64,000 nucleotides of DNA from an uncultured Rhodocyclaceae bacterium (GTDB lineage: Bacteria; Pseudomonadota; Gammaproteobacteria; Burkholderiales; Rhodocyclaceae): contig CAJQTY010000001.1 of assembly GCA_907163075.1 (NCBI GenBank), positions 1,302,001-1,366,000 of the forward strand, given 5' to 3'. Shown piece by piece: positions 16,989 to 42,125 of this stretch. Both the position numbers and the translations under genes were made by a program. The stretch's first letter is position 1, and each line of letters begins with the position of its first letter. Under the pieces are notes generated by a model. The model did no database searches and was not told the DNA's origin. It saw only the letters and a list, made by a program, of their open reading frames with translations.

Positions 16989-18116
16989 TCATCCGAGTTC
17001 GGCCGGCGAGGCGATGTAACCAGTCACCTCGAGGTCGAAACCGGTCATGCTCGGCATGCGGCGCGGGCTGGCCAGCAACTTCATCTTGCGTACGCCAAGA
17101 TCGCGCAGGATCTGCGCGCCGATGCCGTAAATACGCGGATCCCACTTGGCGGCCAGTGGCTGCGCCGTCGATTTCCTGCACAGCGCGGCCAGGATGTCGT
17201 TACAGGCTTCCGGACGGCGGAGAAGAACGATGACGCCGGATTCGGCCTTGGCCAGCGCCCCCTGCGCCTGGTCGAGCGAGAACGTGTGCCCGCCCGCCGA
17301 AGGGTCGAGAAAATCAAGCACCGAGAGCGGCTCATGCACACGCACCAGTGTTTCCTTGTCGGGCTGGATTTCACCCTTGCTCAGCGCCAAGTGAACTTCG
17401 TTCGAGGTTCGGTCGGTATAGGCGTGCAGAGTGAATTCGCCGTGCACCGAGCGGACCGGTTTGGAGAATGTTCGCTCGATCAACGTTTCGTTGCGGCTGC
17501 GGAAATGAATGAGGTCGGCGATCGTACCTATCTTCAGGCCATGTTCACGGGCAAACTCGATCAGGTCCGGCAGGCGCGCCATCGTACCGTCGGCCTTGAG
17601 TATTTCGCAGATGACCGACGACGGATCGAGCCCGGCCATCTGTGCAAGGTCGCACCCAGCCTCGGTGTGCCCGGCGCGCACCAGTACGCCGCCATCCTTG
17701 GCGGTGATCGGGAAAATGTGCCCAGGCTGGACGATATCCTCTGGCCGTGCGTCGCGGGCGACGGCGGCCTGCACCGTACGCGCCCGGTCCTGCGCCGAAA
17801 TTCCGGTCGACACGCCTTCCGCCGCTTCGATCGAAATCGTGAACGCGGTACTGAACTGGCTCTTGTTCTCGCGTGCCATCTGGGTCAGGCCGAGTTGCTT
17901 GCAGCGCGCCTCGGTCAGCGTCAGGCAGACCAGGCCGCGCGCGTGCGTGACCATGAAATTGATGGCCTCGGGGGTCACGTGCTCGGCGGCAAGGATGAGG
18001 TCGCCTTCATTTTCGCGATCGTCTTCGTCAACCAGGATGACCATGCGCCCGGCACGCATTTCGACAATGATGTCTTCGACCGGGGAGATGGACGGCGACG
18101 TGCTTTGCGGTGCCAT
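16989..18116 (-). CDS. ribB: 3,4-dihydroxy-2-butanone 4-phosphate synthase with degenerate GTP cyclohydrolase II domain
   Basis: The N-terminal domain (about 1-205) is a complete RibB, with ILVDEDDRENEGDLILAAE and the THARGLVCL segment. The C-terminal domain (about 210-375) has the RibA fold but lacks the three zinc-binding cysteines. Where RibA has RVHSEC and a CDCG motif, this protein reads RVHEPLSVLDFLDPSAGGH. The late segment YGIGAQILRDLGV is retained. GTP cyclohydrolase II activity is therefore unlikely, and a separate RibA should exist elsewhere. Such RibB hybrids are known in proteobacteria. The ATG directly abuts the TAA of a ribE remnant. Confidence 0.9.
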   Translation of the reverse strand: MAPQSTSPSISPVEDIIVEMRAGRMVILVDEDDRENEGDLILAAEHVTPEAINFMVTHARGLVCLTLTEARCKQLGLTQMARENKSQFSTAFTISIEAAEGVSTGISAQDRARTVQAAVARDARPEDIVQPGHIFPITAKDGGVLVRAGHTEAGCDLAQMAGLDPSSVICEILKADGTMARLPDLIEFAREHGLKIGTIADLIHFRSRNETLIERTFSKPVRSVHGEFTLHAYTDRTSNEVHLALSKGEIQPDKETLVRVHEPLSVLDFLDPSAGGHTFSLDQAQGALAKAESGVIVLLRRPEACNDILAALCRKSTAQPLAAKWDPRIYGIGAQILRDLGVRKMKLLASPRRMPSMTGFDLEVTGYIASPAELG

Positions 18117-18192
18117 TTATTTGTCCTCTGAAATATCGGGAGCGTCGGGATTGAGTATCCGCTCGACGTAGCGCGCGATCATGTTGAATCTC
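18117..18192 (-). pseudogene. ribE: 3'-terminal remnant of ribE fused to ribB
   Basis: Read on the minus strand, this segment ends MIARYVERILNPDAPDISEDK and a TAA immediately followed by the ribB ATG. It matches the end of intact ribE 7.8 kb away (LIARYVERMLNCDDAV). Similarity begins at GAGATT (18187-18192) with one extra base early on, so the piece is not translatable as part of a gene. It marks the original ribE-ribB junction before the intervening DNA arrived. Confidence 0.85.
18157..18181. repeat. Left copy of ribE-end direct repeat (candidate attachment site)
   Basis: 24 of 25 bases are identical to 25924-25948, with a 17-bp exact core ATCCGCTCGACGTAGCG. The two copies are in direct orientation and bracket the accessory island. 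Confidence 0.85.
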
Positions 18193-18586
18193 GTCACAAG
18201 TTAGTATTCATGCGGTGTTTGGCGCAGCCTGACGCCGCATGCCGTCACCCATACCATCGTCAGCTTCATGGATACAAATCGCACACATATCTGCAGGAAA
18301 GTCTTCCATTTTCCCACACCCTTGCCATTGGATGCCAGTTTTTGCCGCAATTGGCAGCGCAGCTAACAGTATCACACACTAAACTCCGGCAAGTCGCCAT
18401 CGACCGTTTAAGGCATCCCAGGCACGGGCCACACCTCTATATGGGCGAAGACCCGATTGCCCGGCTGCTGGCCAACCGGTCTCTCTCGTCGACCGCCAGC
18501 GGAAAGCAAGGGCATCTCCTTACCGCCAGATTTGACGATTGGTCTGGCGGAGCCCCTTGAGACAGAGATTGGCCGGCACGTGAGAG
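18193..18586. other. Island edge without a recognised gene
   Basis: 394 bases between the ribE remnant and the LysR gene. Open frames of up to 116 codons occur, but none resembles a known protein. I looked specifically for integrase C-terminal motifs and saw none. Confidence 0.5.
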
Positions 18587-19558
18587 TCAGCGCTGACGAA
18601 TAGCCTTTCGCCCGTTCGCTTCTGCCGTGCCCAGTTCCTTTTCGCTCAGGACATAGTCGGTGCTGTTTTCCAGACGTCCGATCGCCAGATCAATGAACGC
18701 ACGAACGCGCGAGGGTTGATCTGTCCGACTTCCGTAATAAACGAAGACGCTGATGTTATCGGCGACGTGGCCGGTGAGCAAAGGCACCAGGCGCCCCGAA
18801 CGAATATGCGAGGCGGCCGAAATGTTGGCCAGCGACCCGATCGCCTGGCCGGACAGGACGGCCTCGACCTCGAGTTCGGAGTCGTTGGTGGACAGTGCGG
18901 GCGGGACATCCCGCAGGACGACCTCACCGTCGACCTTGACCGACCACGGCAGCAAGCGTCCGCTTGCCGGGTGACGAAATGCGCAGCAGCGATGTAGCGA
19001 CAGATCGTCAAGCGAATTCGGAAAACCATGCTGTTCCAGGTAGGCCGGTGCGGCGCAGATGATCAACTGAAGCGGAAACAGTCGGCGTGCGATGACGCCT
19101 TCCTCGGCTTGAAAGCCGATGCGAAAACCGACGTCGACGCGATCCTGAACCCAGTTTCCAATCCGATCGTCGAGATGCACGTCGGGCTGTACGCCAGGAT
19201 TCTGACGACAAAACTCGTTCACCAACGGCCACAACACGGGCAGGAAGGTTGAGCGCGGCCCAACCACCCGCAAAGGCCCGGCGCGCTCGTCCTTGGCAGC
19301 GCGTACACGCAAAAGAGCGCGCTCCAGCGCGGCGACTGCCGGCTGCGCCGATTCAAGGAACTGCTGCCCCTCATCGGTGAGCGCGATGTGGCGTGTCGTA
19401 CGGTGCAGCAAGCGCACGCCCAGATGCAGCTCCAGCTGCATCAACGCCTGACTCGCTGCTTGCGGGCTCATGCCCTGTGCCGCCGCCGCCTTTCTCAGAC
19501 TCCCGAATTCCACCGCCTTGGCAAATGTGGCAATCGCGCGCAGTTCATTGATCGACAA
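18587..19558 (-). CDS. LysR-family transcriptional regulator
   Basis: A 323-residue LysR regulator with an N-terminal winged helix (FAKAVEFGSLRKAAAAQGMSPQAA in two adjoining parts, residues about 11-35) and a periplasmic-binding-like effector domain. I prefer the TTG at 19558 because AGGAG precedes it by seven bases; an in-frame upstream start would add 18 unrelated residues. It is divergent from a deleted short-chain dehydrogenase gene beginning at 19686, a common LysR-SDR pairing, so its original target was probably that gene. Confidence 0.88.
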   Translation of the reverse strand: MSINELRAIATFAKAVEFGSLRKAAAAQGMSPQAASQALMQLELHLGVRLLHRTTRHIALTDEGQQFLESAQPAVAALERALLRVRAAKDERAGPLRVVGPRSTFLPVLWPLVNEFCRQNPGVQPDVHLDDRIGNWVQDRVDVGFRIGFQAEEGVIARRLFPLQLIICAAPAYLEQHGFPNSLDDLSLHRCCAFRHPASGRLLPWSVKVDGEVVLRDVPPALSTNDSELEVEAVLSGQAIGSLANISAASHIRSGRLVPLLTGHVADNISVFVYYGSRTDQPSRVRAFIDLAIGRLENSTDYVLSEKELGTAEANGRKAIRQR

Positions 19559-19685
19559 GGTGAATCTCCTGAGCAAACATTGATTATCAATCTTTACTTG
19601 TCTCTTGATCAACTACTTGACCACTAGTTTAGTGATAGCGAACCCACTAAAGTACATTTCAGAAAATTCTGCCTGGAGTCATGTC

Positions 19686-19803
19686 ATGAGCAACAACATT
19701 GCATGCAAGGTCAAGCGATCTTCAGGAGGTCGGGCAGGCACTGTCCGCGATCAAGGTCGAAGGAGACCATCCCGCCCAGTTACAGAAGCTGGTCGGACGT
19801 TAG
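19686..19803 (+). pseudogene. Internally deleted short-chain dehydrogenase
   Basis: The frame opens with MSNNIACKV, very like the start MSNNIxGKVVVITGA of many SDR enzymes, then jumps frame. Another frame carries what looks like a protein end (LQEVGQALSAIKVEGDHPAQ, stop TAG at 19801-19803). I read it as the two ends of one gene, or of two neighbouring genes, joined by a deletion. The C-terminal family is not recognised. It faces the divergent LysR gene. Confidence 0.45.
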
Positions 19804-19851
19804 TAGTCGATCATATTGAAACCAATAGACCAAAGAATCGCGTGATTCAGC

Positions 19852-20177
19852 ATGACTGACGACCAGCCGCCATTCGTCAAGCAGGATTTTTTTGTGCGGT
19901 GTGCTTACCGCAAATCATCACCGCCTACGGAATCTTCGCCTCGTTCGAACACGGCGTCTTTTCGAGAGTCACTGTGTATTACTCGTTCGGCAACAGTGAA
20001 CTTGACGAACCGGTTCTCGGATTCCTTGTCCAGTACGTTGCTATTGTTGGACTGTACACGGTTCTAAGGTACCGAGCGCTGCAACTTCTCAAAGGCCGGT
20101 CGCGGTCGTTTGGACAATCCCGCCCAGGCACCTCGATAATACGCAGTTGGTGGTGCAAATGTGAATATCGAAGCTGA
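19852..20177 (+). pseudogene. Small two-helix membrane protein, frameshifted at a T-run
   Basis: An ATG at 19852 opens MTDDQPPFVKQDFF and reaches a run of seven T residues. One extra T would continue the frame as CAVCLPQIITAYGIFASFEH, giving two hydrophobic segments (about 15-40 and 60-85 of the joined product) up to the stop at 20175-20177. It is either a genuine frameshift or a homopolymer sequencing error. The family is not recognised. Confidence 0.4.
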
Positions 20178-20245
20178 TCCGCACCGCCTACACCGGCGGA
20201 TCAATTGCCGATCCAGCGTTCGGGAATCGTAGATAAGGAACTCAA

Positions 20246-21358
20246 TTGTTGGCGAACATCAAAGTAACCGCAGGTTTTGCCGGCCGGCGCATGAAGCGCT
20301 GGCTCGTGATCGTTCTGTCTGGAGTGGCTCTAGTGACTGCTTGTTCAAGCTACGTCATCAAGGATGCGCCGACCTTTCCGGCATCGGCTCAGTTCAAGGA
20401 TGGGCGTTTTCAGAATCCGGTTCCGCGGCCACCTATTCATTTCTGGGATGACCCGAAACTGGTGTGGACCTTCTTTTTCGACAAGCCCGCTGGCACGGTT
20501 CCCGACAAAGCAGTTCCCGTGCGCGAGCTGACGCGCGCCGAGTTGTTGGCCGCGCCCGACAACAGCGTATTCCGTCTTGGCCACTCGACGCTGCTCCTCA
20601 AGATCCACAACAAATTCTGGCTCACGGACCCGGTCTTTTACGATCGGGCTTCGCCGGTTCAATGGTTCGGCCCGACACGCTTTCATGCGCCGCCGATTTC
20701 AATCGAGGAACTCCCTCCGATTGAGGCCGTGATCCTCTCGCACAATCATTACGATCACCTCGACAATTCTGCGGTCCTCGAGCTGGCTGAAAAAACAAAA
20801 CACTTCATCGCGCCGCTAGGCGTGGGTGACCTGCTGATCTCGTGGGGAATTGACGCCACAAAGGTCCGCCAGCTTGACTGGTGGGAATCAACCGAAATTG
20901 ACTCAATCCGCTTCGTTTCGACGCCTGCGCAACATTTCTCCGGCCGGGGAGTGACGGATGAAGACAAGACCCTATGGACGTCCTGGGTCATTCTCGAAGC
21001 GGGTTTTCGACTCTTCTTCAGTGGAGACTCGGGGTACTTTGATGGCTTCAAGGCGATTGGCGCGAGTTACGGGCCGTTCGACATGGCTTTCCTCGAGACG
21101 GGGGCTTACGACGCCAGATGGGCCTACGTGCACATGAGGCCTGAAGAGACGCTGCAAGCGTTTCTCGACTTGCGTGGCAAATCGCTGTTCCCGATCCACA
21201 ACGGGACCTTTGATCTGGCCATGCATCGCTGGGATGACCCTTTCGAGCGCATCATGCAACTGGCTGAGGCGCACCAGATTTCCTTGTCCACACCGCTGAT
21301 GGGTGAGCGTGTCGGCTTTCTTGCCCCGCGCACTGGAAGCGCGTGGTGGCGAAATTGA
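20246..21358 (+). CDS. Metallo-beta-lactamase-fold hydrolase, lipoprotein (NAPE-PLD/UlaG-like)
   Basis: A 370-residue MBL-fold protein. The metal motif HNHYDHLD is at about 169-176, with later metal-site residues in TPAQHFSGRG and FFSGDSGYF. It resembles NAPE-hydrolysing phospholipase D-like and UlaG-like enzymes; the substrate is unknown. An N-terminal hydrophobic segment ends in a lipobox (ALVTAC), so it is probably a lipoprotein. The TTG at 20246 has AAGGA at good spacing; an ATG at 20291 (MKRWLVIVLSG) would remove 15 residues and directly begin the signal peptide. Confidence 0.85.
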   Translation: MLANIKVTAGFAGRRMKRWLVIVLSGVALVTACSSYVIKDAPTFPASAQFKDGRFQNPVPRPPIHFWDDPKLVWTFFFDKPAGTVPDKAVPVRELTRAELLAAPDNSVFRLGHSTLLLKIHNKFWLTDPVFYDRASPVQWFGPTRFHAPPISIEELPPIEAVILSHNHYDHLDNSAVLELAEKTKHFIAPLGVGDLLISWGIDATKVRQLDWWESTEIDSIRFVSTPAQHFSGRGVTDEDKTLWTSWVILEAGFRLFFSGDSGYFDGFKAIGASYGPFDMAFLETGAYDARWAYVHMRPEETLQAFLDLRGKSLFPIHNGTFDLAMHRWDDPFERIMQLAEAHQISLSTPLMGERVGFLAPRTGSAWWRN

Positions 21359-21530
21359 CGCCTGCTCTTTCCGGCCCGGCTTGCGGCGGGATCTCGTGAA
21401 CTCGGGCGGATTCAAGTGGATGGAGAAGGTCAGTGACGAGCAATATCCTGCAAAATAGGCAACGCACGGCAGGAGACCCCTTCGTGACTGCTCCCTGTTG
21501 CAAACAGCAATTATTACTGGAACGGAAAAC

Positions 21531-22307
21531 ATGAAGCTCAAAAAACGTTGCGCGACCACTTTCGTTGCCTTGCTCATGCTGTCGTTCGGGCTGAGCGTAG
21601 CCAATGCAGCCCTGTCCGACGGCGGACTGGAAAGGCCGAACTGGTTTACGGCACCACGGCATTCTGCCGGCATCGCGCCCGACCCGGCCAAACTGGCCGA
21701 CGTCGCGATCGTCCAGGTCTACGCCGCGCCGACCTATGGCTGGCGCGGTCTGCTCGCCGTCCATCCCTGGATCATCTTCAAGCGCTCCGGTGAAACCGCC
21801 TTCACGCGCTATGACGTGATCGGATGGCGTGGCGAAGACGTGGTCCAGCGCAACTACGCGCTTCCGGACGGTCTGTGGTACGGCGCGCAGCCCAAACTGT
21901 TGGTCGATCATCGCGGTAACGGCGCCGAAGAGATGATCGCTCAAATTGAAGAAGCTATTGCAAGCTACCCTTACGCGAACAGCTATAAAGCCTATCCCGG
22001 CCCCAACAGCAACACTTTCCTCGCCCACATCGGCCGGGAGGTTTCGGCCTTGGGCCTTGATTTGCCGGCGAATGCGATCGGCAAGGACTATCGCACAATC
22101 GACCGGCCACTCGGCCTCTCATCTACCGGAAGAGGACTGCAAGCCAATCTATTCGGATTGCTGGGCGTAAGTATCGGGCTGGACGAAGGTATCGAATTCA
22201 ATGTACTGGGCGTCAATTTCGGCCTCGACCTGAACAGCCCCGGCCTGCGACTGCCATTCATCGGCCGCATCGGAATGGACGACACGACCAGAAATAGCAG
22301 TGACTGA
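21531..22307 (+). CDS. DUF3750 family secreted protein
   Basis: A 258-residue protein with a signal peptide (LKKRCATTFVALLMLSFGLS) and a domain resembling DUF3750 (VQVYAAPTYGWRGLLAVHPW, FTRYDVIGWRG, SYPYANSYKAYPGPNSNTF). The histidine in AVHPW and the cysteine-free PGPNSNTF motif suggest a papain-like or amidase-like fold, but no activity is established. Start ATG at 21531 has a GGAACGG upstream. It lies between the MBL gene and the decarboxylase-like gene on the same strand. Confidence 0.75.
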   Translation: MKLKKRCATTFVALLMLSFGLSVANAALSDGGLERPNWFTAPRHSAGIAPDPAKLADVAIVQVYAAPTYGWRGLLAVHPWIIFKRSGETAFTRYDVIGWRGEDVVQRNYALPDGLWYGAQPKLLVDHRGNGAEEMIAQIEEAIASYPYANSYKAYPGPNSNTFLAHIGREVSALGLDLPANAIGKDYRTIDRPLGLSSTGRGLQANLFGLLGVSIGLDEGIEFNVLGVNFGLDLNSPGLRLPFIGRIGMDDTTRNSSD

Positions 22308-22406
22308 GGTGACGACACACGCGGCCTTTTGCTTCCTGGCCAATAAGAAACTGGACTGACATTCTCCAACCAAACTTCAACCAAACATGCAGGAAAAGGA
22401 AGCACG

Positions 22407-23144
22407 ATGAGAAAGAAAATCGCATCGATCTTGGCCGTTGTCTGCATTGCGCCCTGGGGGTTTGCCGGAATATCAGAGGCGCAAACCCTGGACGTCAATC
22501 AAGGTTTGAATGCCAAACAGCAAGGAATCATTCCCATTGCGGCGTTTACTGGCAAAGGCGACCTGGAGAAATTGTCAGCCGCCCTGCATGAAGGGCTGGA
22601 AGCCGGTCTGAGCATCAACGAGATCAAGGAAGTACTCGTCCAGATGTACGCTTATACCGGCTTCCCGCGCAGCCTCGATGGTCTCAACACCTTCATCTCC
22701 GTACTGGGTGATCGGCAAAAGAAGGGACTCAAGGACGACGTCGGCAAAGACGCGAGCCCGCTCCCCGCAAACAAATCCCGGCGTGAGCTCGGTACCGAGA
22801 TTCAGACTGGCCTTGTCGGCAGGCCGGTCGGCGGCCCCACGTATGATTTCGCCCCGATCATCGATACCTTTCTGAAGGAACACCTTTTTGCCGACATTTT
22901 CGGGCGCGACGTTCTGGATTTTCAGGCGCGGGAGCTGGCGACAGTGTCGGCCCTTGCCAGCCTGCCGGCTGAAAACCAGCTGCGTTCCCATCTGAGCGTC
23001 AGCATGAACGTCGGCTTGAGCGAGGCCCAGATGAGGCAATTCGTGTCCGTGCTCGGCAACAAGGTTGGCAAAGTCGAAGCGGATATCGCCGGCAGGCTGT
23101 TGGACGTGGTGTTGAAAAACAGACCACTTTCAACTGCAAAATAA
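22407..23144 (+). CDS. Carboxymuconolactone decarboxylase-family protein, exported, two domains
   Basis: A 245-residue protein with a signal peptide (MRKKIASILAVVCIAPWGFA) followed by two CMD/AhpD-like helical domains, roughly 35-120 and 140-240. Family patterns include LHEGLEAGLSINEIKEVLVQ and, in the second domain, DFQARELATVSALASLPAEN. I do not see the CxxC thiol pair of AhpD in either domain, so it may not be a peroxidase. It is probably cotranscribed with the truncated NAD(P)-binding gene 50 bases downstream. Confidence 0.85.
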   Translation: MRKKIASILAVVCIAPWGFAGISEAQTLDVNQGLNAKQQGIIPIAAFTGKGDLEKLSAALHEGLEAGLSINEIKEVLVQMYAYTGFPRSLDGLNTFISVLGDRQKKGLKDDVGKDASPLPANKSRRELGTEIQTGLVGRPVGGPTYDFAPIIDTFLKEHLFADIFGRDVLDFQARELATVSALASLPAENQLRSHLSVSMNVGLSEAQMRQFVSVLGNKVGKVEADIAGRLLDVVLKNRPLSTAK

Positions 23145-23193
23145 ATGGAAACGAGGCCCCCATCGGGGAGTACTCGAACCAAGGAAAAAGAGA

Positions 23194-23265
23194 ATGAACA
23201 AACATCCTGTCACCGTCCTGGTTGTCGGCGCAACCGGCAGCATTGCCGGCTCGTGGTGGCCGAGG
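23194..23265 (+). pseudogene. NAD(P)-binding (NmrA-like) gene start, frameshifted and truncated
   Basis: ATG at 23194 opens MNKHPVTVLVVGATGSI, the Rossmann start of an NmrA-like SDR. Inserting one G after base 23243 would continue GRLVVAEAMR, the expected next helix. The sequence then runs into a transposase fragment at about 23266. The gene is therefore frameshifted and cut by an insertion sequence. Confidence 0.7.
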
Positions 23266-23267
23266 CC

Positions 23268-23505
23268 ATGCGCTCTTGCCGGCTTTGTCCAGCGCTGCCG
23301 TGATGATCACCGCCTCCAGCCGCGCCGCCGCTGTCCATGCCCGCCCTCGGGCGGACATGGACAGCACGTCATCTCGCCAACGTTCGAGCGTGCCTGCACC
23401 AATGCCAACTTCACGAGCCACCACGTCCAACGCCGCACTTTCTGGCGGCAGCAATCGCGCTACCACTCTACCTTTGAATTTCTCTGAGTACCTTGCCATT
23501 TCCAT
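23268..23505 (-). mobile_element. IS3-type transposase OrfA fragment
   Basis: The frame starting at 23505 (MEMARYSEKFKGRVVARLLP) carries the helix-turn-helix of IS3-family OrfA proteins (DVVAREVGIGAGTLERWRDD) and continues to AALDKAGKSAW. There it diverges into the sequence of the broken NmrA-like gene. OrfB with its DDE domain is missing. The left boundary is approximate. Confidence 0.65.
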
Positions 23506-23559
23506 CCTTTATTGCCGCCCATTGTTGAGATTCTATTGCGGCGACAACTATTCTGACGC

Positions 23560-23866
23560 AGGGGGAGATGGCCGCCGCATCGGCGGCGTCGTTCTTCCCG
23601 CGCTTGCCGGAGAGGCGGTACGGGGTGACGAACTCGGGGGCGATGAGTTTGACGCTGTGGCCGTGGGTGCGGAACAGCCGCGCCCAGTAGTGGGCGCCGG
23701 AGCAGGCTTCCCGGCCGATCAGGCACGGCGGCAGTTTCGCAATGAGCAAAAGCAGTTGGTCACGAAGTACTTTGGGTTTGATCAGCACGGCTTTGCCGTT
23801 CTCATCCACGCCATGCACGGCAAAGATATTCTTGGCAAGATCGATTCCTACCGTGACAATGCTCAT
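23560..23866 (-). mobile_element. IS110-family transposase N-terminal fragment
   Basis: Starting with ATG at 23866 the protein reads MSIVTVGIDLAKNIFAVHGV, the DEDD (RuvC-like) N-terminus of IS110/IS1111 transposases, with CLIGREACSGAHYWARLF and GKRGKNDAADAAAI. It stops matching right after DAAAI, so the C-terminal serine domain is gone. A perfect inverted repeat GGACTTCCCC / GGGGAAGTCC lies just upstream at 23867-23876 and 23960-23969, perhaps the element's end region. Confidence 0.7.
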
Positions 23867-24045
23867 GGACTTCCCCTTTCGTGGTTTCAAATGGACGACT
23901 TCAGAATCACCATTTTGGCACTTCGTTGCCGTGCGCTTTCTTCTCCGCTTCCTCGGGACGGGGAAGTCCCTTTCATTCGTTATATTTCAGACCCACTGCA
24001 TTACCGCAACACCAACACAGTGCCAATTTCTTCAGGCGACACGCA

Positions 24046-25725
24046 ATGAAAATATCTAATCTAGCTCTGACCAACTTCAGAAGCATTGAAGAATTGAGCA
24101 TCGAATTCCCGTCCTTCTACACCGCGATTAGCGGCAAGAACAACTCAGGAAAATCAAATCTCCTCAGAGTATTGAAGATGCTATTTGAGCCGGAGCGACG
24201 GTTTAGATATAGAGACGAGGAAATCAACTTTCCACAATTCTTTCCCGCATGGAAGGCTAAGGACTCTGTCGAGCCGATCAAGTTTTCGATCACGCTTCAA
24301 GTTGATCGAATAAGGGACGCTGCTGTGTTCAAGCTTGCCGATGAATTCTTCAAGATTGACAAGGCTGTTCCATCAATCACTTTGCAGTTTTCCGCAGAGT
24401 ACAACAGGGATAAAGATCAACCTGAGCTTGTAGTCACCCACAGTGAAACCCAGTTGGATTCATTCAAGTCTCGCACCCTGTTCAAGACAGTTCGAAACTC
24501 AGGCGCATTTCAGTTCTATAACTCTACAGAGCCTGAAGATCCATTTGGAACGCGAAATCAGCTGACCGACCTTTTTGGCGAACTTTCAAAAGCTGATCGC
24601 GAACAGCTTGTAAAAGATCGAGACAAGCTTTCAAAAACAATCTCTAGCTTCGCCAAGAAGCACCAAAAGGACATATCCGACTTACTTGGCCGTTTGGAAG
24701 AAAAATACACCGTCGGCCTTTCGGCGCCAAAGCTTGCATTAGACTTTCTCCCAATCAATATAACTCTAGGAGACAAAAAACTTGATGTGGCACTAGATGA
24801 GTGGGGAAGCGGGACTAGGAACCGTACTCATATCCTATTGACACTATTCAAGGCAAAAAAGCTGAGCGAATCGACTGACGATGACACAAAACTCGCACCA
24901 ATCTTGGTCATCGAGGAGCCAGAGAGCTTCTTGCACCCCTCTGCCCAAGCTGAATTCGGCCGGCTAATTCAGGATTTGTGTGAGGAGTTCAAGGTACAGG
25001 TGCTAGTTGCAACGCATAGCCCGTACTTCCTAAGCCAGCAACGACCGGAAAGTAACGTCTTGCTATGTCGCAGGTCAGAAGGTGGCCAGCTACGACGCAC
25101 GGAAAGAATAGAAGTTGGAACTGAAAACTGGATGGAGCCGTTCGCACAAAATCTTGGTCTCGCAAACCCTGAATTTGAGCCATGGAGAGAGCTATTCTTT
25201 TCCCGGACTAGCCGAATTCTTCTCGTCGAAGGTGACATTGACAAAGAATATTTCGAAATGCTCAGAGATGAATCACATGGGATACATCGGCTCGACTTTG
25301 ACGGTGAGATATTTGCCTATGGTGGTACCGGAACCATAAGCAATGGCGTTTTGTTACGTTTCATCAAGGGGCGCTATGACAGATTCTTTATCACATTTGA
25401 CCTTGATGCCGAAAACGGCTTATCCAAACTGCTTCAAGGACTCGGGCTAGAAAAGTTGAAGCACTATGCTGCTGTTGGAATTAATGGCGGTGGCCGTAAC
25501 AAAATTGAAGGCCTTCTCCCTGAAAGCGTCCGAAACGCGGTCTACGGAAAAAATGGGGAACTGGTTCAACAGGTGATGGGCGGTACCAGCGATGAGGCAA
25601 AGTCAGCAAAGCAAAAACTCAAACGATTGCTGCTGACCGAATTTAAAAAGCAAGCAACTCCTGGCGCTGAGCACTTTGGTGAGTTTTACAAACTATCTAA
25701 GTTAATTACAAAGGCAATGCAGTAG
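24046..25725 (+). CDS. OLD-family ATP-dependent endonuclease
   Basis: A 559-residue protein with an N-terminal ABC-type ATPase (Walker A SGKNNSGKS at about 29-37, signature-like WGSGTRNRTHILL, Walker B ILVIEEPESFLHP near 286) and a C-terminal TOPRIM nuclease (ILLVEGDIDKEYFEML near 390, FITFDLDAENG near 450). This is the architecture of OLD and of GajA of the Gabija anti-phage system. No UvrD-like GajB partner is present, so it looks like a class 1, stand-alone OLD. The gene is visibly AT-richer than the window, with codon use unlike its neighbours, indicating acquisition. Start ATG at 24046 has no strong ribosome binding site. Confidence 0.88.
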   Translation: MKISNLALTNFRSIEELSIEFPSFYTAISGKNNSGKSNLLRVLKMLFEPERRFRYRDEEINFPQFFPAWKAKDSVEPIKFSITLQVDRIRDAAVFKLADEFFKIDKAVPSITLQFSAEYNRDKDQPELVVTHSETQLDSFKSRTLFKTVRNSGAFQFYNSTEPEDPFGTRNQLTDLFGELSKADREQLVKDRDKLSKTISSFAKKHQKDISDLLGRLEEKYTVGLSAPKLALDFLPINITLGDKKLDVALDEWGSGTRNRTHILLTLFKAKKLSESTDDDTKLAPILVIEEPESFLHPSAQAEFGRLIQDLCEEFKVQVLVATHSPYFLSQQRPESNVLLCRRSEGGQLRRTERIEVGTENWMEPFAQNLGLANPEFEPWRELFFSRTSRILLVEGDIDKEYFEMLRDESHGIHRLDFDGEIFAYGGTGTISNGVLLRFIKGRYDRFFITFDLDAENGLSKLLQGLGLEKLKHYAAVGINGGGRNKIEGLLPESVRNAVYGKNGELVQQVMGGTSDEAKSAKQKLKRLLLTEFKKQATPGAEHFGEFYKLSKLITKAMQ

Positions 25726-25898
25726 CCATCTTTTTCGTGAAACATAACGATTAAGCAACTGTCTTGGAAGTCAAGAACAGAGCCGGCCCCGGGAAATCGG
25801 ACAGAAGGATAACTGATAGCCTTACCGCCACAACGAGATTATTACGACATGGCCAGTGGTGTACAAGACTTTGTTTTAAGAAGGACATAAACTTGGCA

Positions 25899-26504
25899 TT
25901 AAACCGCATCGTCACAATTTAGCATCCGCTCGACGTAGCGGGCGATCAGGTCGATCTCGAGATTTACCCGGCTGCCCTGCTGCAAGTTGCCCAGCGTCGT
26001 TGCCTCCAGGGTGTGCGGAATCAGGTTGATGGCGAAGCAGGCGCCGCTGACCGTGTTGGTCGTCAGACTGACGCCATTGACGGTGATCGACCCCTTGCGC
26101 GCGATATACTTGGCCAAAGCTTCGGGCGCGCGTATCTCAAGCAGACGGTTGTCACCGACGGGATCGAAACGCAGCACCTCGCCGACGCCGTCGACGTGCC
26201 CTGACACAAGATGCCCGCCGAGGCGGTCGGACAGGCGCAGCGCCTTTTCAAGGTTGATCTCGCCAGGGACGTCGAGGCCGATGGTGCAGGCCAGCGTTTC
26301 CGGCGAGACGTCGACGCAAAAGTCGTCATCGCGCTTGTCGACGACGGTCAGGCAGACGCCATTGCAGGCGATCGAGTCGCCGAGCGCGACATCGTCAAGA
26401 CCAAGACGGCCGGCGTCGACGGTCAGCCGCACCGTCGGCGTGCCGTCGTTGCGCGGCGCCAGCTCGGTAATACGGCCGATGGCCGCGATGATTCCGGAGA
26501 ACAT
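25899..26504 (-). CDS. ribE: Riboflavin synthase alpha subunit
   Basis: A 201-residue riboflavin synthase that dismutates lumazine into riboflavin. It shows the two internally homologous barrels: MFSGIIAAIGRITEL with SIACNGVCLTVVD in the first, and GHLVSGHVDGVGEV with KGSITVNGVSLT in the second. The start ATG is at 26504. Its last eight residues (MLNCDDAV) differ from the remnant that abuts ribB, because the accessory island lies immediately after it. It should be the second gene of the riboflavin operon but is now separated from ribB by 7.8 kb. Confidence 0.95.
   Translation of the reverse strand: MFSGIIAAIGRITELAPRNDGTPTVRLTVDAGRLGLDDVALGDSIACNGVCLTVVDKRDDDFCVDVSPETLACTIGLDVPGEINLEKALRLSDRLGGHLVSGHVDGVGEVLRFDPVGDNRLLEIRAPEALAKYIARKGSITVNGVSLTTNTVSGACFAINLIPHTLEATTLGNLQQGSRVNLEIDLIARYVERMLNCDDAV
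25924..25948. repeat. Right copy of ribE-end direct repeat (candidate attachment site)
   Basis: Lies inside the last codons of intact ribE. It pairs with 18157-18181 (one mismatch in 25). Confidence 0.85.
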
Positions 26505-26662
26505 ATTTAAGATCAATCAGATAGGTGCGAAAAAGGCACCATTCTAGCACGATGCCTGGGCGCACCGACCGTCGATCGTATTACGCTGCGCCCAGGGCAA
26601 TCGCATGAAGACCAAGTCATTTAAATGAAAGTCCGCAAGCTTCCTTTCACCCAAGGCTTGTC

Positions 26663-36567: not shown

Positions 36568-37353
36568 TCAGGACATGAACATGCCGCCGTCGATGTTGAT
36601 CGTCTGACCGGTGATGTAAGCGGCGTCGTCGGAAGCCAGGAAACTCACCAGGCCGGCGACATCCTCGCCGGTACCGGCACGCCCCATCGGGATGCTGGCG
36701 ACCCATTCGGCCATCAGCTCACCGGGCTTGTAATCGCCCAGCAGCTTGCCCCAGGCCGCGTCGTTATAGGCCCACATGTCGGTGCTGATGATGCCCGGGC
36801 AAAACGCGTTGACGGTAATTCCCGTCTTCGCCAGTTCCTTGGCCAGGCTTTGCGTGATGCCGATCACGCCAAACTTGCTGGCCGCATAGTGCGGGGTGTA
36901 GATGAACCCCTGGCGCGCCTGGCCCGAGGCAGTGTTGATCAGGCGCCCGCACTTGCCAGCAGCGCGCATGCGCAGCGCCGCCTCCTGGCAGCACAGGAAC
37001 ACCCCCTTGGTGTTCACCGCCATGATCTTGTCCCACTCGGCCTCGGTCAGGTCTTCAAGGCGGGCCACGGTAATGACGCCGGCGTTCTGCACCGAGATAT
37101 CGACCTCGCCGAGTTCGCGCGCGACCTGCTCGTACATCGCCTTTACCTGCGCCTGGCTGGTAACGTCGACCAGCACGGAAATGGCCTTCGCCCCGGCTGC
37201 CCGCAGAGCGGCTGCGGTTTCGTGCACCAGCGGTTCGTTGGCCGCCACGCAAACGCTGGCGCCATCGCGCGCAAAACGCTCGGCGATGCTCCTGCCGATG
37301 CCCCGACTGCCGCCGGTAATCACGGCGACCTTGCCTTCGAATTGTTTCGACAT
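36568..37353 (-). CDS. Short-chain dehydrogenase (polyol-type)
   Basis: A 261-residue classical SDR. The NAD(P) motif is TGGSRGIGRS, the structural segment reads QNAG instead of NNAG, and the active site is TASGQ with YAASK. The C-terminus ends in ITGQTINIDGGMFMS. It resembles sugar and polyol dehydrogenases; the second position of the NAD site does not settle the cofactor. AAGGGA lies seven bases upstream of the ATG. It follows the second dehydrogenase across a 150-bp MITE-like insert. Confidence 0.88.
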   Translation of the reverse strand: MSKQFEGKVAVITGGSRGIGRSIAERFARDGASVCVAANEPLVHETAAALRAAGAKAISVLVDVTSQAQVKAMYEQVARELGEVDISVQNAGVITVARLEDLTEAEWDKIMAVNTKGVFLCCQEAALRMRAAGKCGRLINTASGQARQGFIYTPHYAASKFGVIGITQSLAKELAKTGITVNAFCPGIISTDMWAYNDAAWGKLLGDYKPGELMAEWVASIPMGRAGTGEDVAGLVSFLASDDAAYITGQTINIDGGMFMS

Positions 37354-37376
37354 GCTTGAATCCCTTTCTGAGTAAG

Positions 37377-37526
37377 CGCTAGTGGTCAGTCATGCTGAAA
37401 ACAAAGGCCCGCCCACGTCATTCCGGCGAAAGCCGGAATCCGGCAGGGCTCCACTGGATTCCGGATCAAGCCCGGAAGGACGGAATCTGCAGCGCCTTCT
37501 CCATTCATATTGACTGTCCACTAGCG
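37377..37526. repeat. MITE-like 150-bp element between the two dehydrogenase genes
   Basis: The ends are inverted repeats of 16 bases with one mismatch, CGCTAGTGGTCAGTCA at 37377-37392 and TGACTGTCCACTAGCG at 37511-37526. Inside lies the palindrome ATTCCGGC-N4-GCCGGAAT at 37420-37439. No coding sequence is present. It is a good candidate for a miniature transposable element or REP-type cassette. Confidence 0.65.
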
Positions 37527-37531
37527 AGCTA

Positions 37532-38296
37532 TCACCAGCAAACAAAACCGCCGTCGACGATCAGGTCGACACCGGTGCAGAAGGACGCCGCCTTGCTCGA
37601 CAGGAACACCGCCGGGCCGACCATCTCGTCGACGGTCGCCATGCGTCCGATGGGCGTGTCGCGCTCGAATATCTTGCGCTGCTCGGCCACCTCGGGGCGC
37701 AGGTTCATCGGCGTCAGCGTATAGCCAGGGCTGATGCAGTTGACGCGCAGACCGCGGTCGCTCCATTCCATGGCCAGGCTCTTGCTGAGGTGGATCACCG
37801 CCGCCTTGGAACTGTTGTAGTGCGCCTGCAGCAGGCCGCGATTGACGATGCTCCCGGACATCGAGGCGATGTTGACAATGCTGCCACGCCGCCGCGGCAG
37901 CATCACACGCGCCTGCGCCTGGCAGGAGAGGAACACGCCATCGACATTGACCTGCATGACGCGCTGCCACTGTTCCAGCGATAGCTCTTCGGCCGGCGCG
38001 GCGTTGGCGATGCCGGCGCTGTTGACCGCCACGCTCAGCGCGCCAAGATCGCGTTCGGTCGCGGCGACGGCCGCTTCCATGTCGGCGGCGCGGGTGACGT
38101 TGCCTTCTATGGCCAGCGCGCGACGGCCAAGGGCCTCGATCTGCCCCACGGTGACGGCCAGCCCGGCGCTGCCGGGCAGATCCACACACGCCACGTCGGC
38201 GCCGGCCTCGGCCAGACCGACGGCGATGCGCTGGCCAATTCCGCTACCCGCACCGGTCACGAAGGCAATCTCGCCGCGCAAATCAAATAGGTCCAT
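37532..38296 (-). CDS. Short-chain dehydrogenase (threitol/arabitol-like)
   Basis: A 254-residue SDR with the cofactor motif TGAGSGIGQ, an aspartate after the second strand (CVDLPG) suggesting NAD, VNSAG, the catalytic serine in IASMSG and YNSSK. The C-terminus ends in FCTGVDLIVDGGFVCW. It resembles dehydrogenases of polyol pathways (threitol, arabitol, sorbitol), but the substrate is inference from context. It is encoded between transporter set 2 and the first dehydrogenase. Confidence 0.88.
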   Translation of the reverse strand: MDLFDLRGEIAFVTGAGSGIGQRIAVGLAEAGADVACVDLPGSAGLAVTVGQIEALGRRALAIEGNVTRAADMEAAVAATERDLGALSVAVNSAGIANAAPAEELSLEQWQRVMQVNVDGVFLSCQAQARVMLPRRRGSIVNIASMSGSIVNRGLLQAHYNSSKAAVIHLSKSLAMEWSDRGLRVNCISPGYTLTPMNLRPEVAEQRKIFERDTPIGRMATVDEMVGPAVFLSSKAASFCTGVDLIVDGGFVCW

Positions 38297-38393
38297 GAAT
38301 ATTCCTCTGTCAGTGGTGTCGGCTCAGGAAGCCGATGGGGTTAAGGATGGTTCAGCGCCTGCTGAGCCGTATGTAAAACCAGTAAAACCGCAA

Positions 38394-39923
38394 TCAGGAC
38401 ACCGCCAGTTCCATGACCCGGGCCGGATCGGCCTCTTCGCGCGTCAGCGTTCCGCGCGCTTCGCCGCGCGCCAGAACGACAACGCGATGCGCAAGACCGA
38501 GCACCTCGTCGAGGTCCGAGCTGACCACGATCACCGCCATCCCGGTAGCCGCCAGCGCGGCAATGACCTCGTAGATGGCGGCACGCGCGCCAACGTCGAT
38601 GCCGCGCGTCGGCTCGTCCAGGATGATGACCTTGGGATCGCGCGCCAGCCACTTGGCGATGACGACCTTTTGCTGATTGCCGCCGGACAGGCTGCCGGCC
38701 AGGTGATTGTGCCGCCCCTTGACTCCGAGCCGCTCGATGAACTTCTCGGCAAAGGCCGCCGTGCGCGCCGGATCCAGCCAGCCTTTCGGTGCCACCTGGT
38801 CGAAGTTGTTGTAGGCCATGTTGTCGCCGATACTGTGCGGCAGAACCACGCCGAGCGCCTTCCGGTCGTCCGGCACGAGGACGAGACGCTCGCGGATGGC
38901 GTCCATCGGGGTCCGTATCGCAACCTGCTTGCCGCGAATCTCGATCGTTCCGCTGGCGATCGGATCAACGCCGGCAATGGCCCGCATCAACTCCGTGCGC
39001 CCCGCGCCGACGATGCCGGCAAAGCCGAGAACTTCGCCTTCGCGCACTTCGAACGAGACATCCTTGAAGCGGCCGTTCGGCGCGTGGAGATGGCGAACCG
39101 CCAGCGCCACCGGAGCGTTTTCCGGCGGCGCCGGAATCGACGGGAACAGCCGATCGACGCTGCGCCCGACCATCTCGCGCACAAGTTGCCCGGTGGATAT
39201 CTGCGCCGTGTCGTGGAAAGCCACTTGCACGCCGTCGCGCAGGACGACGATACGGTCGGCGATACGGGCGATTTCCGCCAGCCGGTGGCTGACATAGATG
39301 AACGACACGCCCTGGGCCTTCAGACGATGGATCTGCTCGAAAAGACGATCGGTCTCGCGTTCGCCCAGGGCCGTCGTCGGCTCGTCGAGGATAAGAAGCC
39401 TGGCGTTCAGCGTCAGCGCCTTGGCAATTTCGACCTGCTGCTGGGCGGCGACGCTGAGCGTGCCAACCTTCTGCGTGGCCGACACCTCCAGCCCCAGGCG
39501 TCTGAGCTGGACCTGCGCGCGCTCGACCATGCCCGCCATGTCGATGCGGCCGCCCTTCATGAGCAGGCGGCCAACGAACACATTCTCGGCAATGGTCAAT
39601 TCCGGCAGCAGGCGCATTTCCTGGTGGATCAGGCCGATGCCGGCATGCAAGGCGTCGGCCGGCGCCTGCGGCGCGTAGGGCTTGCCCTGCCAGGTCATCG
39701 ATCCGCCCGGGTCCGACTGATTGATGCCGGCGATGATCGACGACAGGGTCGACTTTCCAGCGCCGTTCTCACCCAGCAAGGCAACAAGCTCGCCGGTATG
39801 CACCGCCATGTTGACACCGCTCAGCACGGTCGTCATGCCGTAGGTTTTTCCTATGTTGCGCAGCACCAGGCCCGCACTGGCGGACTCGGAGCGGCCTTCG
39901 GCCAGGGACTCGACGGTATTCAT
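38394..39923 (-). CDS. Ribose-type ABC transporter ATPase (set 2)
   Basis: A 509-residue tandem RbsA-type ATPase. Half one: GENGAGKSTLSSIIAG, LSVAAQQQVEIAKAL, LILDEPTTAL. Half two: GIVGAGRTELMRAIAG, LSGGNQQKVVIAKWLARD, ILDEPTRGID. It belongs with the binding protein 74 bases upstream and the permease beyond that. It is not a recent copy of the set-1 ATPase; the two differ throughout. Confidence 0.92.
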   Translation of the reverse strand: MNTVESLAEGRSESASAGLVLRNIGKTYGMTTVLSGVNMAVHTGELVALLGENGAGKSTLSSIIAGINQSDPGGSMTWQGKPYAPQAPADALHAGIGLIHQEMRLLPELTIAENVFVGRLLMKGGRIDMAGMVERAQVQLRRLGLEVSATQKVGTLSVAAQQQVEIAKALTLNARLLILDEPTTALGERETDRLFEQIHRLKAQGVSFIYVSHRLAEIARIADRIVVLRDGVQVAFHDTAQISTGQLVREMVGRSVDRLFPSIPAPPENAPVALAVRHLHAPNGRFKDVSFEVREGEVLGFAGIVGAGRTELMRAIAGVDPIASGTIEIRGKQVAIRTPMDAIRERLVLVPDDRKALGVVLPHSIGDNMAYNNFDQVAPKGWLDPARTAAFAEKFIERLGVKGRHNHLAGSLSGGNQQKVVIAKWLARDPKVIILDEPTRGIDVGARAAIYEVIAALAATGMAVIVVSSDLDEVLGLAHRVVVLARGEARGTLTREEADPARVMELAVS

Positions 39924-39997
39924 GGGCTATGCCAAATCGAAGATGCGTTATCGGGGCACGCCAGGCGGCGGGGACACCGCCCGGCGTATAGAGGCGC

Positions 39998-40933
39998 TTA
40001 CGGATGCGCCTTCAGGAACTGCTCGACGTTGGCTTTGGTCGTCAGCTGCGCGTCGGTCGGCTGATCCTTTATTACCGGCTTGCCGGCCATCAGGGCGGTC
40101 GCGGCATCCACAGCCATGCGTCCCATGGCGAAGGTCTGCTGTGTCGCGGTGGCATCGAGCGAACCGTTCTGGACCGCCTTCAGCCCGCCGACGTCGCCGT
40201 CGTAGCCAAGGACCCAGACCTTTTGCGGCAGACCGGCCAGCTTGACCGCCTGTGCGGCGCCAAGGGCGATCCCGTCAGCCTGACCGAAGATCACGTTGAT
40301 CGTCGGATCGCGCTGCAGCATGTCCTGGGCGATCTTGACGCCTTCGGCCGCCGACCAGCGTTCCGTCCACTGCTCCTGCGTGATCTTCAGGCCCGGGCAC
40401 TTTTCGATCCCCATTCTGAAGCCCTTGGCGCGATCGACCTCGGGCGACGTGCCGCGCTGACCGTGGATCATCACGGCATTGCCCTTGCCGCCGGTTTTTT
40501 CACAGATCCATTCGCCGAGCTGCTTGGTGGCCAGGATGGATTCGCCGCGAATGAAGGTGTCGCCCGGAGCGCCATCGGCCTGGCGGTCGACGTTGATGAC
40601 CGGGATCTTGGCTTCGCGCGCGGCCTTCACCGGCACCGCGGCGGCGGTTGCGCCCGCCGGAATGTAGATCAGCGCATCGATCTTCTGCGTGATCAGGTCC
40701 TGGATCTGATTGACCTGCGTGGTGGCGTCGCCCTTGGCGTCAACGGTGATGATCTTGTAACCCTTTTCCTTGCCGTAGGCTTCGACGGACTGTTTGATCA
40801 TGTTGAAGAATTCCGCCTCCAGGTTAGCCACGGCCAATCCGATTTTCTTTTCCTGTGCACAAACGCCTGTCGAGGCGGCGAGTGCAGCTACGCCAACGGC
40901 AGCGGCGATTGCGATCTGCTTGAATTTGAACAT
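39998..40933 (-). CDS. Ribose-type periplasmic substrate-binding protein (set 2)
   Basis: A 311-residue RbsB-like protein with a signal peptide (IAIAAAVGVAALAASTGVCA). Two-lobe features are AVNLEAEFFNMIKQSVEAYG, VNQIQDLITQKIDALIYIPA and VFGQADGIALGAAQAVKLAG. It differs strongly from the set-1 protein, so the two transporters probably recognise different ligands. It is transcribed after the permease gene, an order less common than binding-protein first. Confidence 0.92.
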   Translation of the reverse strand: MFKFKQIAIAAAVGVAALAASTGVCAQEKKIGLAVANLEAEFFNMIKQSVEAYGKEKGYKIITVDAKGDATTQVNQIQDLITQKIDALIYIPAGATAAAVPVKAAREAKIPVINVDRQADGAPGDTFIRGESILATKQLGEWICEKTGGKGNAVMIHGQRGTSPEVDRAKGFRMGIEKCPGLKITQEQWTERWSAAEGVKIAQDMLQRDPTINVIFGQADGIALGAAQAVKLAGLPQKVWVLGYDGDVGGLKAVQNGSLDATATQQTFAMGRMAVDAATALMAGKPVIKDQPTDAQLTTKANVEQFLKAHP

Positions 40934-41068
40934 GTCTGCTCCAGTGCTTTAAATATGTCTATGTAATCAATATCGCCGTTACTTGAATGAAGGCGATGGC
41001 GCATACCTGGTGGAACGATCGAGTGTCTGTCGGATGTCCTGTTGTGGGCCCTCCTTGCGCAAACGTGA

Positions 41069-42082
41069 TTAGCCAATGCGTCGCTTGTTCGAGTCGACGG
41101 CGACCGCGAGTACGATAACCGTGCCAATGACCACCTGCTGGACGAACGGGGACACGCCGAGCAGGTTGAGCCCGTTGCGCAGCACACCGATTGTCAGCAC
41201 GCCCATCAGCGTCCCCCAGATGGTTCCCACGCCACCGGAGAGGCTGCCGCCACCGATCACCACGGCGGCGATGGTGTCCAACTCGTAGCCCATGCCGCCG
41301 GTCGGCTGCGACGAATCGAGGCGGGTGGACATGACAACGCCGGCGAGTCCGGCCAGCATGCCGCACATGGAGTAAACCGCCAGGGTGACCTTGCGCACCG
41401 GGATTCCGGCCAGCCGCGCGACCTCGGCGCTGCCGCCGATGGCATAGAGAGCACGGCCGCTGGCGCGGTACTTCATGAAGATGGCGGCAATGACGGTAAG
41501 CACGATGAACAGGGCCACGGTCACCGACAGGAAACCGAAATGCCGCCTGATCGACATGGCCGAGAACCAGTCGGCGTAACCGACGATCTGCGAGCCATCG
41601 GTGATCATGTTGGCCAGGCCGCGACAGATCGACATCGTCGCCAGCGTGGCGATGAAGGCCGGCAGGCGCGCATGGGTGATCAGCAGTCCGGAGCCAAGTC
41701 CGCATAGCGCGCCCATGGCCAGGGCGGCGACAATGCACAACTGCATGGGCACGCCGACCACGTTGGACAGCCAGCCCATGACCATCATCGACAGGGCCAG
41801 CACCGAGCCCACCGAGAGGTCGATGCCACCGATGACGATGACCGCTGTCATGCCCAGCGCCATGATGCCGAGAACGGTCAGCTGGTCGAGAACATTGAGC
41901 AGGTTGCGAAAGGAGAAGAACGTGTCGGTCAGTATCGACAGCGCGACGCACAGAACCAGCAGGCTGATCTCGGGGCCGTAGTCCACCAGTTTTCTTGCCC
42001 AGTGGGGCCGTTTGACCGCCCCTTCGGGAGTCGACGCGACGTCCGTGCGGGTGTTTGCCGATGCGTTAGTAGTGGTAGCCAA
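41069..42082 (-). CDS. Ribose-type ABC transporter permease (set 2)
   Basis: A 337-residue RbsC-family inner membrane permease with MTAVIVIGGIDLSVGSVLAL and GGGSLSGGVGTIWGTLMGVL, both conserved. About 8-10 hydrophobic helices follow a hydrophilic 30-residue leader. It lies 43 bases downstream of the kinase gene, indicating cotranscription with the kinase and transketolase. Confidence 0.9.
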   Translation of the reverse strand: MATTTNASANTRTDVASTPEGAVKRPHWARKLVDYGPEISLLVLCVALSILTDTFFSFRNLLNVLDQLTVLGIMALGMTAVIVIGGIDLSVGSVLALSMMVMGWLSNVVGVPMQLCIVAALAMGALCGLGSGLLITHARLPAFIATLATMSICRGLANMITDGSQIVGYADWFSAMSIRRHFGFLSVTVALFIVLTVIAAIFMKYRASGRALYAIGGSAEVARLAGIPVRKVTLAVYSMCGMLAGLAGVVMSTRLDSSQPTGGMGYELDTIAAVVIGGGSLSGGVGTIWGTLMGVLTIGVLRNGLNLLGVSPFVQQVVIGTVIVLAVAVDSNKRRIG

Positions 42083-42125
42083 GATGCCTCCGGGAAATGC
42101 TCTTTTATGTGGCAGGAAGACTGGA

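What the first reader, a model, noticed from the sequence alone, without database searches (positions are those of the whole stretch)
18117..25948. Accessory island inserted at the 3' end of ribE with duplicated gene ends, but no integrase
Intact ribE and ribB, normally adjacent, are 7.8 kb apart. Immediately upstream of ribB a 76-base ribE 3' remnant survives, its TAA abutting the ribB ATG. The two ribE ends share 24 of 25 bases. Read on the minus strand, both edges also carry CTAA[A/C]TTGTGACGA. Gene-end targeting with regeneration of the reading frame is how integrative elements use att sites. No integrase is visible, so this is a relic, a satellite, or a recombinational duplication. A ribE attachment site would be unusual, since tRNA genes are the common targets.
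Basis: partly seen in the sequence, partly recalled or inferred. Interest (0 to 1): 0.72.

Follow-up and report, generated by a model that had tools for sequence, protein, structure and literature searches.

The report
Accessory island between ribE and ribB
Two neighbouring vitamin B2 genes have been pushed apart by a patch of foreign DNA; the same spot holds different foreign DNA in several related bacteria, and no integration enzyme was found there, so the patch may now move by ordinary recombination of its neighbours.

Summary
Of 28 genomes held for this Propionivibrio-like genus, 24 gave a ribB: in 15 ribE runs straight into ribB (empty site); in 4, the window included, ribB follows a ribE 3' remnant with other DNA upstream; in 5 no ribE tail is recognisable. 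The remnant genomes differ in the DNA behind the remnant. Three of the four show an insertion-like switch at a duplicated core. One relative (G007) holds an empty and an occupied allele; between them ribE is ~99% identical at its start and 90.6% over the rest, a recombination tract reaching the junction. No tyrosine or serine recombinase lies near the locus in five genomes checked. Best reading: an integrase-free hotspot, exchanged by homologous recombination in flanking genes, with the displaced ribE end kept because it carries ribB's ribosome-binding site. How that end was first duplicated is unresolved: lost or trans-acting integrase, or one old rearrangement. Integrase-free hotspots are known; two literature searches found no report of this site.

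The parts
25899..26516 (-). ribE, riboflavin synthase, 205 aa, altered last codons
   Evidence: NCBIfam PRK09289 matched to its end at residue 199; TIGR00187 matched to its position 196 of 207
16989..18116 (-). ribB, bifunctional RibBA-type gene
   Evidence: NCBIfam PRK14019 above cut-off
25924..25948 (-). core copy at the ribE side
   Evidence: 24 of 25 bases shared with 18157-18181
18157..18181 (-). core copy in the ribE remnant
18117..18197 (-). ribE 3' remnant, readable as a 26-codon leader ORF ending at the ribB start
   Evidence: in-frame counterparts in G018, G021, G008
18191..18204 (-). CTAACTTGTGACGA, ribB side
25909..25922 (-). CTAAATTGTGACGA, ribE side; CTTAGTTGTGACGA at the same place in G018
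18306..18319 (-). GTGTGGGAAAATGG, possible promoter sequence of the ribB unit
   Evidence: motif match without a chance control; the consensus scan of 18100-18600 found no promoter
18587..19612 (-). LysR-type regulator (cargo)
   Evidence: Pfam PF00126, PF03466
20246..21358 (+). metallo-beta-lactamase-fold hydrolase (cargo)
   Evidence: Pfam PF12706
21498..22307 (+). DUF3750 protein (cargo)
   Evidence: Pfam PF12570
22407..23144 (+). carboxymuconolactone-decarboxylase-like protein (cargo)
   Evidence: Pfam PF02627
22999..23505 (-). ORF with a transposase HTH fragment at its start
   Evidence: Pfam PF01527
23468..23890 (-). IS110 transposase fragment
   Evidence: Pfam PF01548; NCBIfam IS110 matched over 102 of 343 positions
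24046..25725 (+). AAA ATPase, OLD/GajA-like, 559 aa, in low-GC DNA (cargo)
   Evidence: Pfam AAA_15; PADLOC AriA, Old, GajA models; PDB OLD-family 6p74 E 1.2e-11; GC about 0.45-0.48

Best explanation
In this Propionivibrio-like clade the ribE|ribB junction is a hotspot of accessory DNA without a recombinase of its own. An occupied allele is ribE with its last few codons changed, then variable DNA (7.7 kb in the window, 7.3 kb in G021, perhaps about 9.7 kb in G018), then ribB preceded by a displaced native ribE end. SHOWN: empty and occupied sites in related species; different DNA at the same place; a switch from native to non-native sequence at a duplicated core, clear in three of four genomes; no recombinase near the locus in five genomes; one species with both alleles and a recombination tract in ribE that reaches the junction. 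INFERRED: alleles are now exchanged by homologous recombination in the flanking core genes; the remnant is kept because it holds ribB's ribosome-binding site, perhaps as a translated leader of 23-27 codons; a promoter on the island side serves ribB. NOT RESOLVED: how the core was first duplicated.
For: 15 empty, 4 remnant-bearing and 5 tail-less sites among 24 genomes with ribB. G021 has the window's flanks around a different 7.3 kb, whose asnS has a close homologue in 1 of 7 other genomes searched. ribE-side copies match five empty sites (of 15) at 24-28 of 30 bases and then 2-11 of 15; ribB-side copies of G000, G018, G021 match their best empty site at 14, 13 and 15 of 15 after the switch. 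G007: C2 (empty) and C17 (occupied) are 98.9% identical over 10.7 kb and 98.5% over 6.2 kb; five 100-base windows next to the junction have 89-96 identities, the next eight 99-100; ribE 99.2% of 124 bases, then 90.6% of 458. No recombinase match within 81 kb in G007-C2 and 116 kb in G000, none on the relevant contigs of G018, G021, G008 and G007-C17.
Against: The tract in G007 could mean import of the empty allele, or C17 may belong to another strain in the bin; C17 ends 3 kb after ribE, so its ribB side is unseen, and C2 and C17 differ elsewhere too (one 88/100 window and about 85 gap columns; 8.6 kb of C17 unmatched in the 40 kb of C2 compared). The switch is not clear in G008 (best empty site 10 of 15), and before the switch the ribB-side copies are only modestly less native (20-26 of 30) than the ribE-side ones. 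G018 and G008 have ribE and ribB on different contigs, so an island there is inferred. The ribB-side upstream segments of G018 and G021 are similar (score 68, best of 200 shuffles 25) and G021 matches tail-less G003 (53 against 27), while G000 and G008 match none: a common origin of that segment rather than separate insertions is possible.
Confidence: 0.5

Rival explanations
1. Operon fission footprint: one old rearrangement joined a ribB promoter segment to a ribE 3' end fused to ribB, while ribE kept its own drifting tail. The DNA between is later accretion, and there was no insertion that duplicated a core.
For: The ribB-side upstream segment is shared by G018 and G021 and partly by tail-less G003. 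All four remnants begin alike, with RTG followed by a codon or two and then YTC. All four remnant genomes sit in one supported ribB clade (95/90). The window's ribE tail can be read as a drifted native tail. Five genus genomes and all the Accumulibacter loci viewed have ribB without ribE next to it.
Against: Four empty-site genomes are nested in the same ribB clade, so reversion or exchange is needed. The window and G021 keep ribE and ribB in place with only the junction filled. After the switch the remnants of G000, G018 and G021 are as native as empty sites.
Confidence: 0.3
2. Relic or satellite of an integrase element with an attachment site in ribE: a recombinase, lost or acting in trans, inserted the DNA and left attL and attR.
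For: Duplicated core with reciprocal native and non-native sides; intact ribE frame; the ribE-side end TTGTGACGA shared by G000 and G018; different cargo between similar ends.
Against: No tyrosine or serine recombinase match at the locus in five genomes; no viral contig with ribE or its core; no copy of the core elsewhere in 28 genomes; recombination tract in the G007 pair.
Confidence: 0.17

Closest known systems
[quoted passage not shown] 2017, PMC5635113; passages seen)
   Same: Variable DNA between two core genes, empty and occupied alleles, no recombinase seen, recombination tract in a flanking core gene in one species
   Different: Here a 25-base gene end is duplicated at the edges and a remnant of the upstream gene stays in front of the downstream gene; excess recombination in ribE and ribB was not measured
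Integrative elements targeting gene 3' ends (recalled; no call)
   Same: Insertion at a gene end, intact frame, repeated core at both edges
   Different: No integrase found at the locus; protein gene ribE rather than a tRNA gene; no excision evidence
Defence hotspots between core genes (Pseudomonas aeruginosa core defence hotspots, PMC10250203; title and start of abstract in a listing)
   Same: Defence-like genes in some occupied alleles: OLD-like ATPase in the window, type III restriction-modification in G018 and, by DNA similarity, next to ribE on G007-C17
   Different: G021 carries asnS, asparaginase and branched-chain amino acid transport genes, so it is not a dedicated defence site

Membership tests
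Integrase-free hotspot with recombination at flanking core genes | Different accessory DNA at one place between conserved core genes, with empty sites | tested here: met
   15 empty and 4 remnant-bearing sites of 24; different contents
Integrase-free hotspot with recombination at flanking core genes | No mobile element or recombinase that explains the turnover | tested here: met
   in five genomes; only transposase fragments in the window; contigs of G018, G008 and G007-C17 end near the locus
Integrase-free hotspot with recombination at flanking core genes | Homologous recombination in the flanking core genes | tested here: inconclusive
   One mosaic ribE pair in G007; no rate against other core genes measured
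Integrative element of the tyrosine or serine integrase type | Recombinase gene in or beside the element | tested here: not met
   PF00589 and PF00239 searches in five genomes
Integrative element of the tyrosine or serine integrase type | Repeated core at both edges with native sequence on opposite sides | tested here: met
   clear for G000, G018 and G021; not clear for G008
Integrative element of the tyrosine or serine integrase type | Excision and a circular form | not testable with these tools
   needs reads or PCR

The most novel reading that the evidence does not exclude
A family of recombinase-less mobile islands whose two ends mimic the ribE 3' end: one end gives ribE a new tail, the other gives ribB a promoter and a mini-ribE leader that restores its translation, so the island can sit between two vitamin-biosynthesis genes without harm and travels by an enzyme in trans or by host recombination.
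Probability: 0.15. Interest if true: 0.62.

Novelty: new member of a known kind. Interest (0 to 1): 0.4.

Why it matters
It is a compact, checkable case of an accessory hotspot without an integrase, with an empty and an occupied allele in one binned species and a visible recombination tract. It also suggests how an operon can be opened without silencing the downstream gene: the ribosome-binding site of ribB lies inside the displaced end of ribE.

Tried and rejected
tRNA-targeted island: no tRNA in the window and no Rfam match at gathering score. Riboswitch as ribB leader: none by the same Rfam search. Extra copies of the ends elsewhere: one further CTAAATTGTGACGA in G000, inside an unrelated ORF, within the control rate; no further copy of the core. 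Phage or provirus origin: the viral collection gave 9 pattern stretches, none encoding a ribE relative, and 0 exact core matches. A one-base insertion shared by the remnants, suspected by eye, vanished in the alignment. One occupied ribE lineage: occupied ribE genes do not group, but that tree is poorly resolved (8 of 24 inner branches well supported, bootstrap not settled). Oxalobacteraceae as the same thing: 24 loci there have 0.6-9.8 kb between ribE and ribB, but no ribE remnant by eye in the 150 bases before ribB, and in 23 of 24 by eye the sequence AAATCCTTTAAAATA. Literature: 'ribE' with 'integration site' gave 20 papers, 15 listed, none on such an island by title (one checked by passages); 'genomic island', 'ribE', 'inserted', 'ribB' gave 0.

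Full report
Observation. ribE and ribB in the window are 7,782 bases apart; the remnant, the 24/25 repeat and the two motifs are at the stated places. ribE is a complete riboflavin synthase: PRK09289 is matched to its end at residue 199, so the altered last codons lie beyond that model (TIGR00187 is matched only to position 196 of 207). ribB is a bifunctional RibBA-type gene.

Comparison. The window lies in a 5.2 Mb genome, G000. Named ribB relatives include Propionivibrio dicarboxylicus and P. limicola, whose ribB proteins are identical to those of genus genomes G005 and G009. Of 28 genus genomes, 24 gave a ribB (none in G001, G015, G016, G025). Upstream of it, 15 have ribE next to it, 4 have a ribE remnant with other DNA (G000, G018, G021, G008), and 5 have no recognisable ribE tail (G002, G003, G004, G010, G020). 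In G021 the same flanks hold 7.3 kb with asnS, asparaginase and branched-chain amino acid transport genes (four of these ORFs were scanned with Pfam, the rest named by eye); its asnS has a close homologue in only one (G018, with a stop in it) of seven other genomes searched. In G018 ribE is followed by type III restriction-modification genes and an AAA ATPase. There ribE and ribB lie on different contigs, but a 127-base repeat (94%) lies about 9.2 kb after ribE and about 340 bases before ribB, consistent with an island of about 9.7 kb later broken at that repeat; parts of it have several copies in G013. G008 has ribE and ribB on different contigs in different surroundings. The window insert has no DNA similarity to the material behind ribE or before ribB in G018, G021 and G008 beyond the genes themselves.

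Insertion pattern. Over 45 aligned bases and five of the 15 empty sites, the ribE-side copies of the four genomes match at 24-28 of 30 bases and then at 2-11 of 15. The ribB-side copies match their best empty site at 14 (G000), 13 (G018), 15 (G021) and 10 (G008) of 15 after the switch. Before it they are less native (G000 23-26, G018 23-25, G021 20-23, G008 23-24 of 30), which is a modest difference. This is what an insertion inside the core would leave; it is clear in three genomes and not in G008.

Two alleles in one species. G007 has ribE next to ribB on contig C2 and a second ribE on C17, followed by sequence 81.5-83.7% identical to the G018 restriction gene. The contigs are 98.9% identical over 10.7 kb and 98.5% over 6.2 kb, with weaker stretches of 96.3% (1.6 kb) and 94.3% (2.0 kb), and 8.6 kb of C17 has no match in the 40 kb of C2 compared. 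Going upstream from the junction, five 100-base windows show 89-96 identities and the next eight 99-100; further up there is one window of 88 and a gapped stretch. Within ribE, 99.2% of the first 124 compared bases and 90.6% of the next 458 are identical. This is a recombination tract that reaches the junction. Its direction is not known, its donor was not found, and C17 may come from a second strain in the bin.

No recombinase. Matches to PF00589 and PF00239 in G000, G018, G021, G008 and G007 are all on other contigs or far off: 116 kb or more in G000, 81 kb on C2 of G007. C17 ends 3 kb after ribE, the G008 contigs are 10-11 kb, and the G018 contigs end 10-16 kb from the junction, so a recombinase beyond those ends is not excluded. 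The viral collection gave no ribE relative and no core match.

Leader. The remnant can be read as an open frame of 26, 23, 23 and 27 codons in G000, G018, G021 and G008, ending at the ribB start. A purine-rich ribosome-binding site for ribB lies inside it by eye, as inside the ribE end at several empty sites. A TGNGARAAT sequence lies upstream of ribB in eight of the nine remnant-bearing or tail-less genus genomes looked at (not in G008) and in five Accumulibacter loci (one of them 317 bases upstream); no chance control was run for it, and the consensus scan of the window region found no promoter. The ribB-side upstream segments of G018 and G021 are similar over about 115 bases (score 68, best of 200 shuffles 25) and G021 resembles tail-less G003 (53 against 27); G000 and G008 resemble none of the others by this test. 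This speaks for a common origin of the segment in G018 and G021.

Trees. In the ribB tree all four remnant genomes sit in one supported clade (95/90) together with four empty-site genomes, G012, G022, G007 and G013. The ribE tree is poorly resolved and does not group the occupied genes.

Cargo of the window island. LysR regulator, metallo-hydrolase, DUF3750, CMD protein, two transposase fragments (an HTH fragment and IS110) and an OLD-like ATPase in DNA of about 0.45-0.48 GC against about 0.6-0.65 in ribE and ribB. Parts of the transposase fragments recur at many places in G000. It is a patchwork, not a coherent element.

Verdict. A real hotspot with an insertion footprint. Integrase-free hotspots with recombining flanks are described (PMC5635113, passages), so this is a new member of a known kind; the origin of the duplicated ribE end remains open.

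Noticed in passing
L121, L129, L130, L132, L133, L137-L141, L143, L146, L149-L151, L153, L154, L156-L160, L162, L163: In 24 loci titled Massilia, Duganella, Rugamonas and kin, 0.6-9.8 kb of variable DNA (M16 protease-like and other ordinary genes, by eye) separates ribE and ribB, without a ribE remnant.
   Followed up: partly
L034 and L035 against window 36572-45308: In G003 and G002 the DNA upstream of ribB matches window DNA that lies 18-27 kb further on, so the ribE|ribB junction is also a rearrangement breakpoint there.
   Followed up: no
window 23266-23567 and 23617-23982: Pieces of transposase fragments with many copies (up to 98% identical) elsewhere in G000.
   Followed up: no
L031:6537-6663 and L066:11058-11184: A 127-base repeat (94%) near both broken ends of the supposed G018 island; parts recur in G013.
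   Followed up: partly
L069 and L070 (ribE of G025 and G001): ribE ends (NYRDDA, NCRDDV) that resemble the window's NCDDAV tail; no ribB was found in these incomplete genomes, so their junction is unknown.
   Followed up: no
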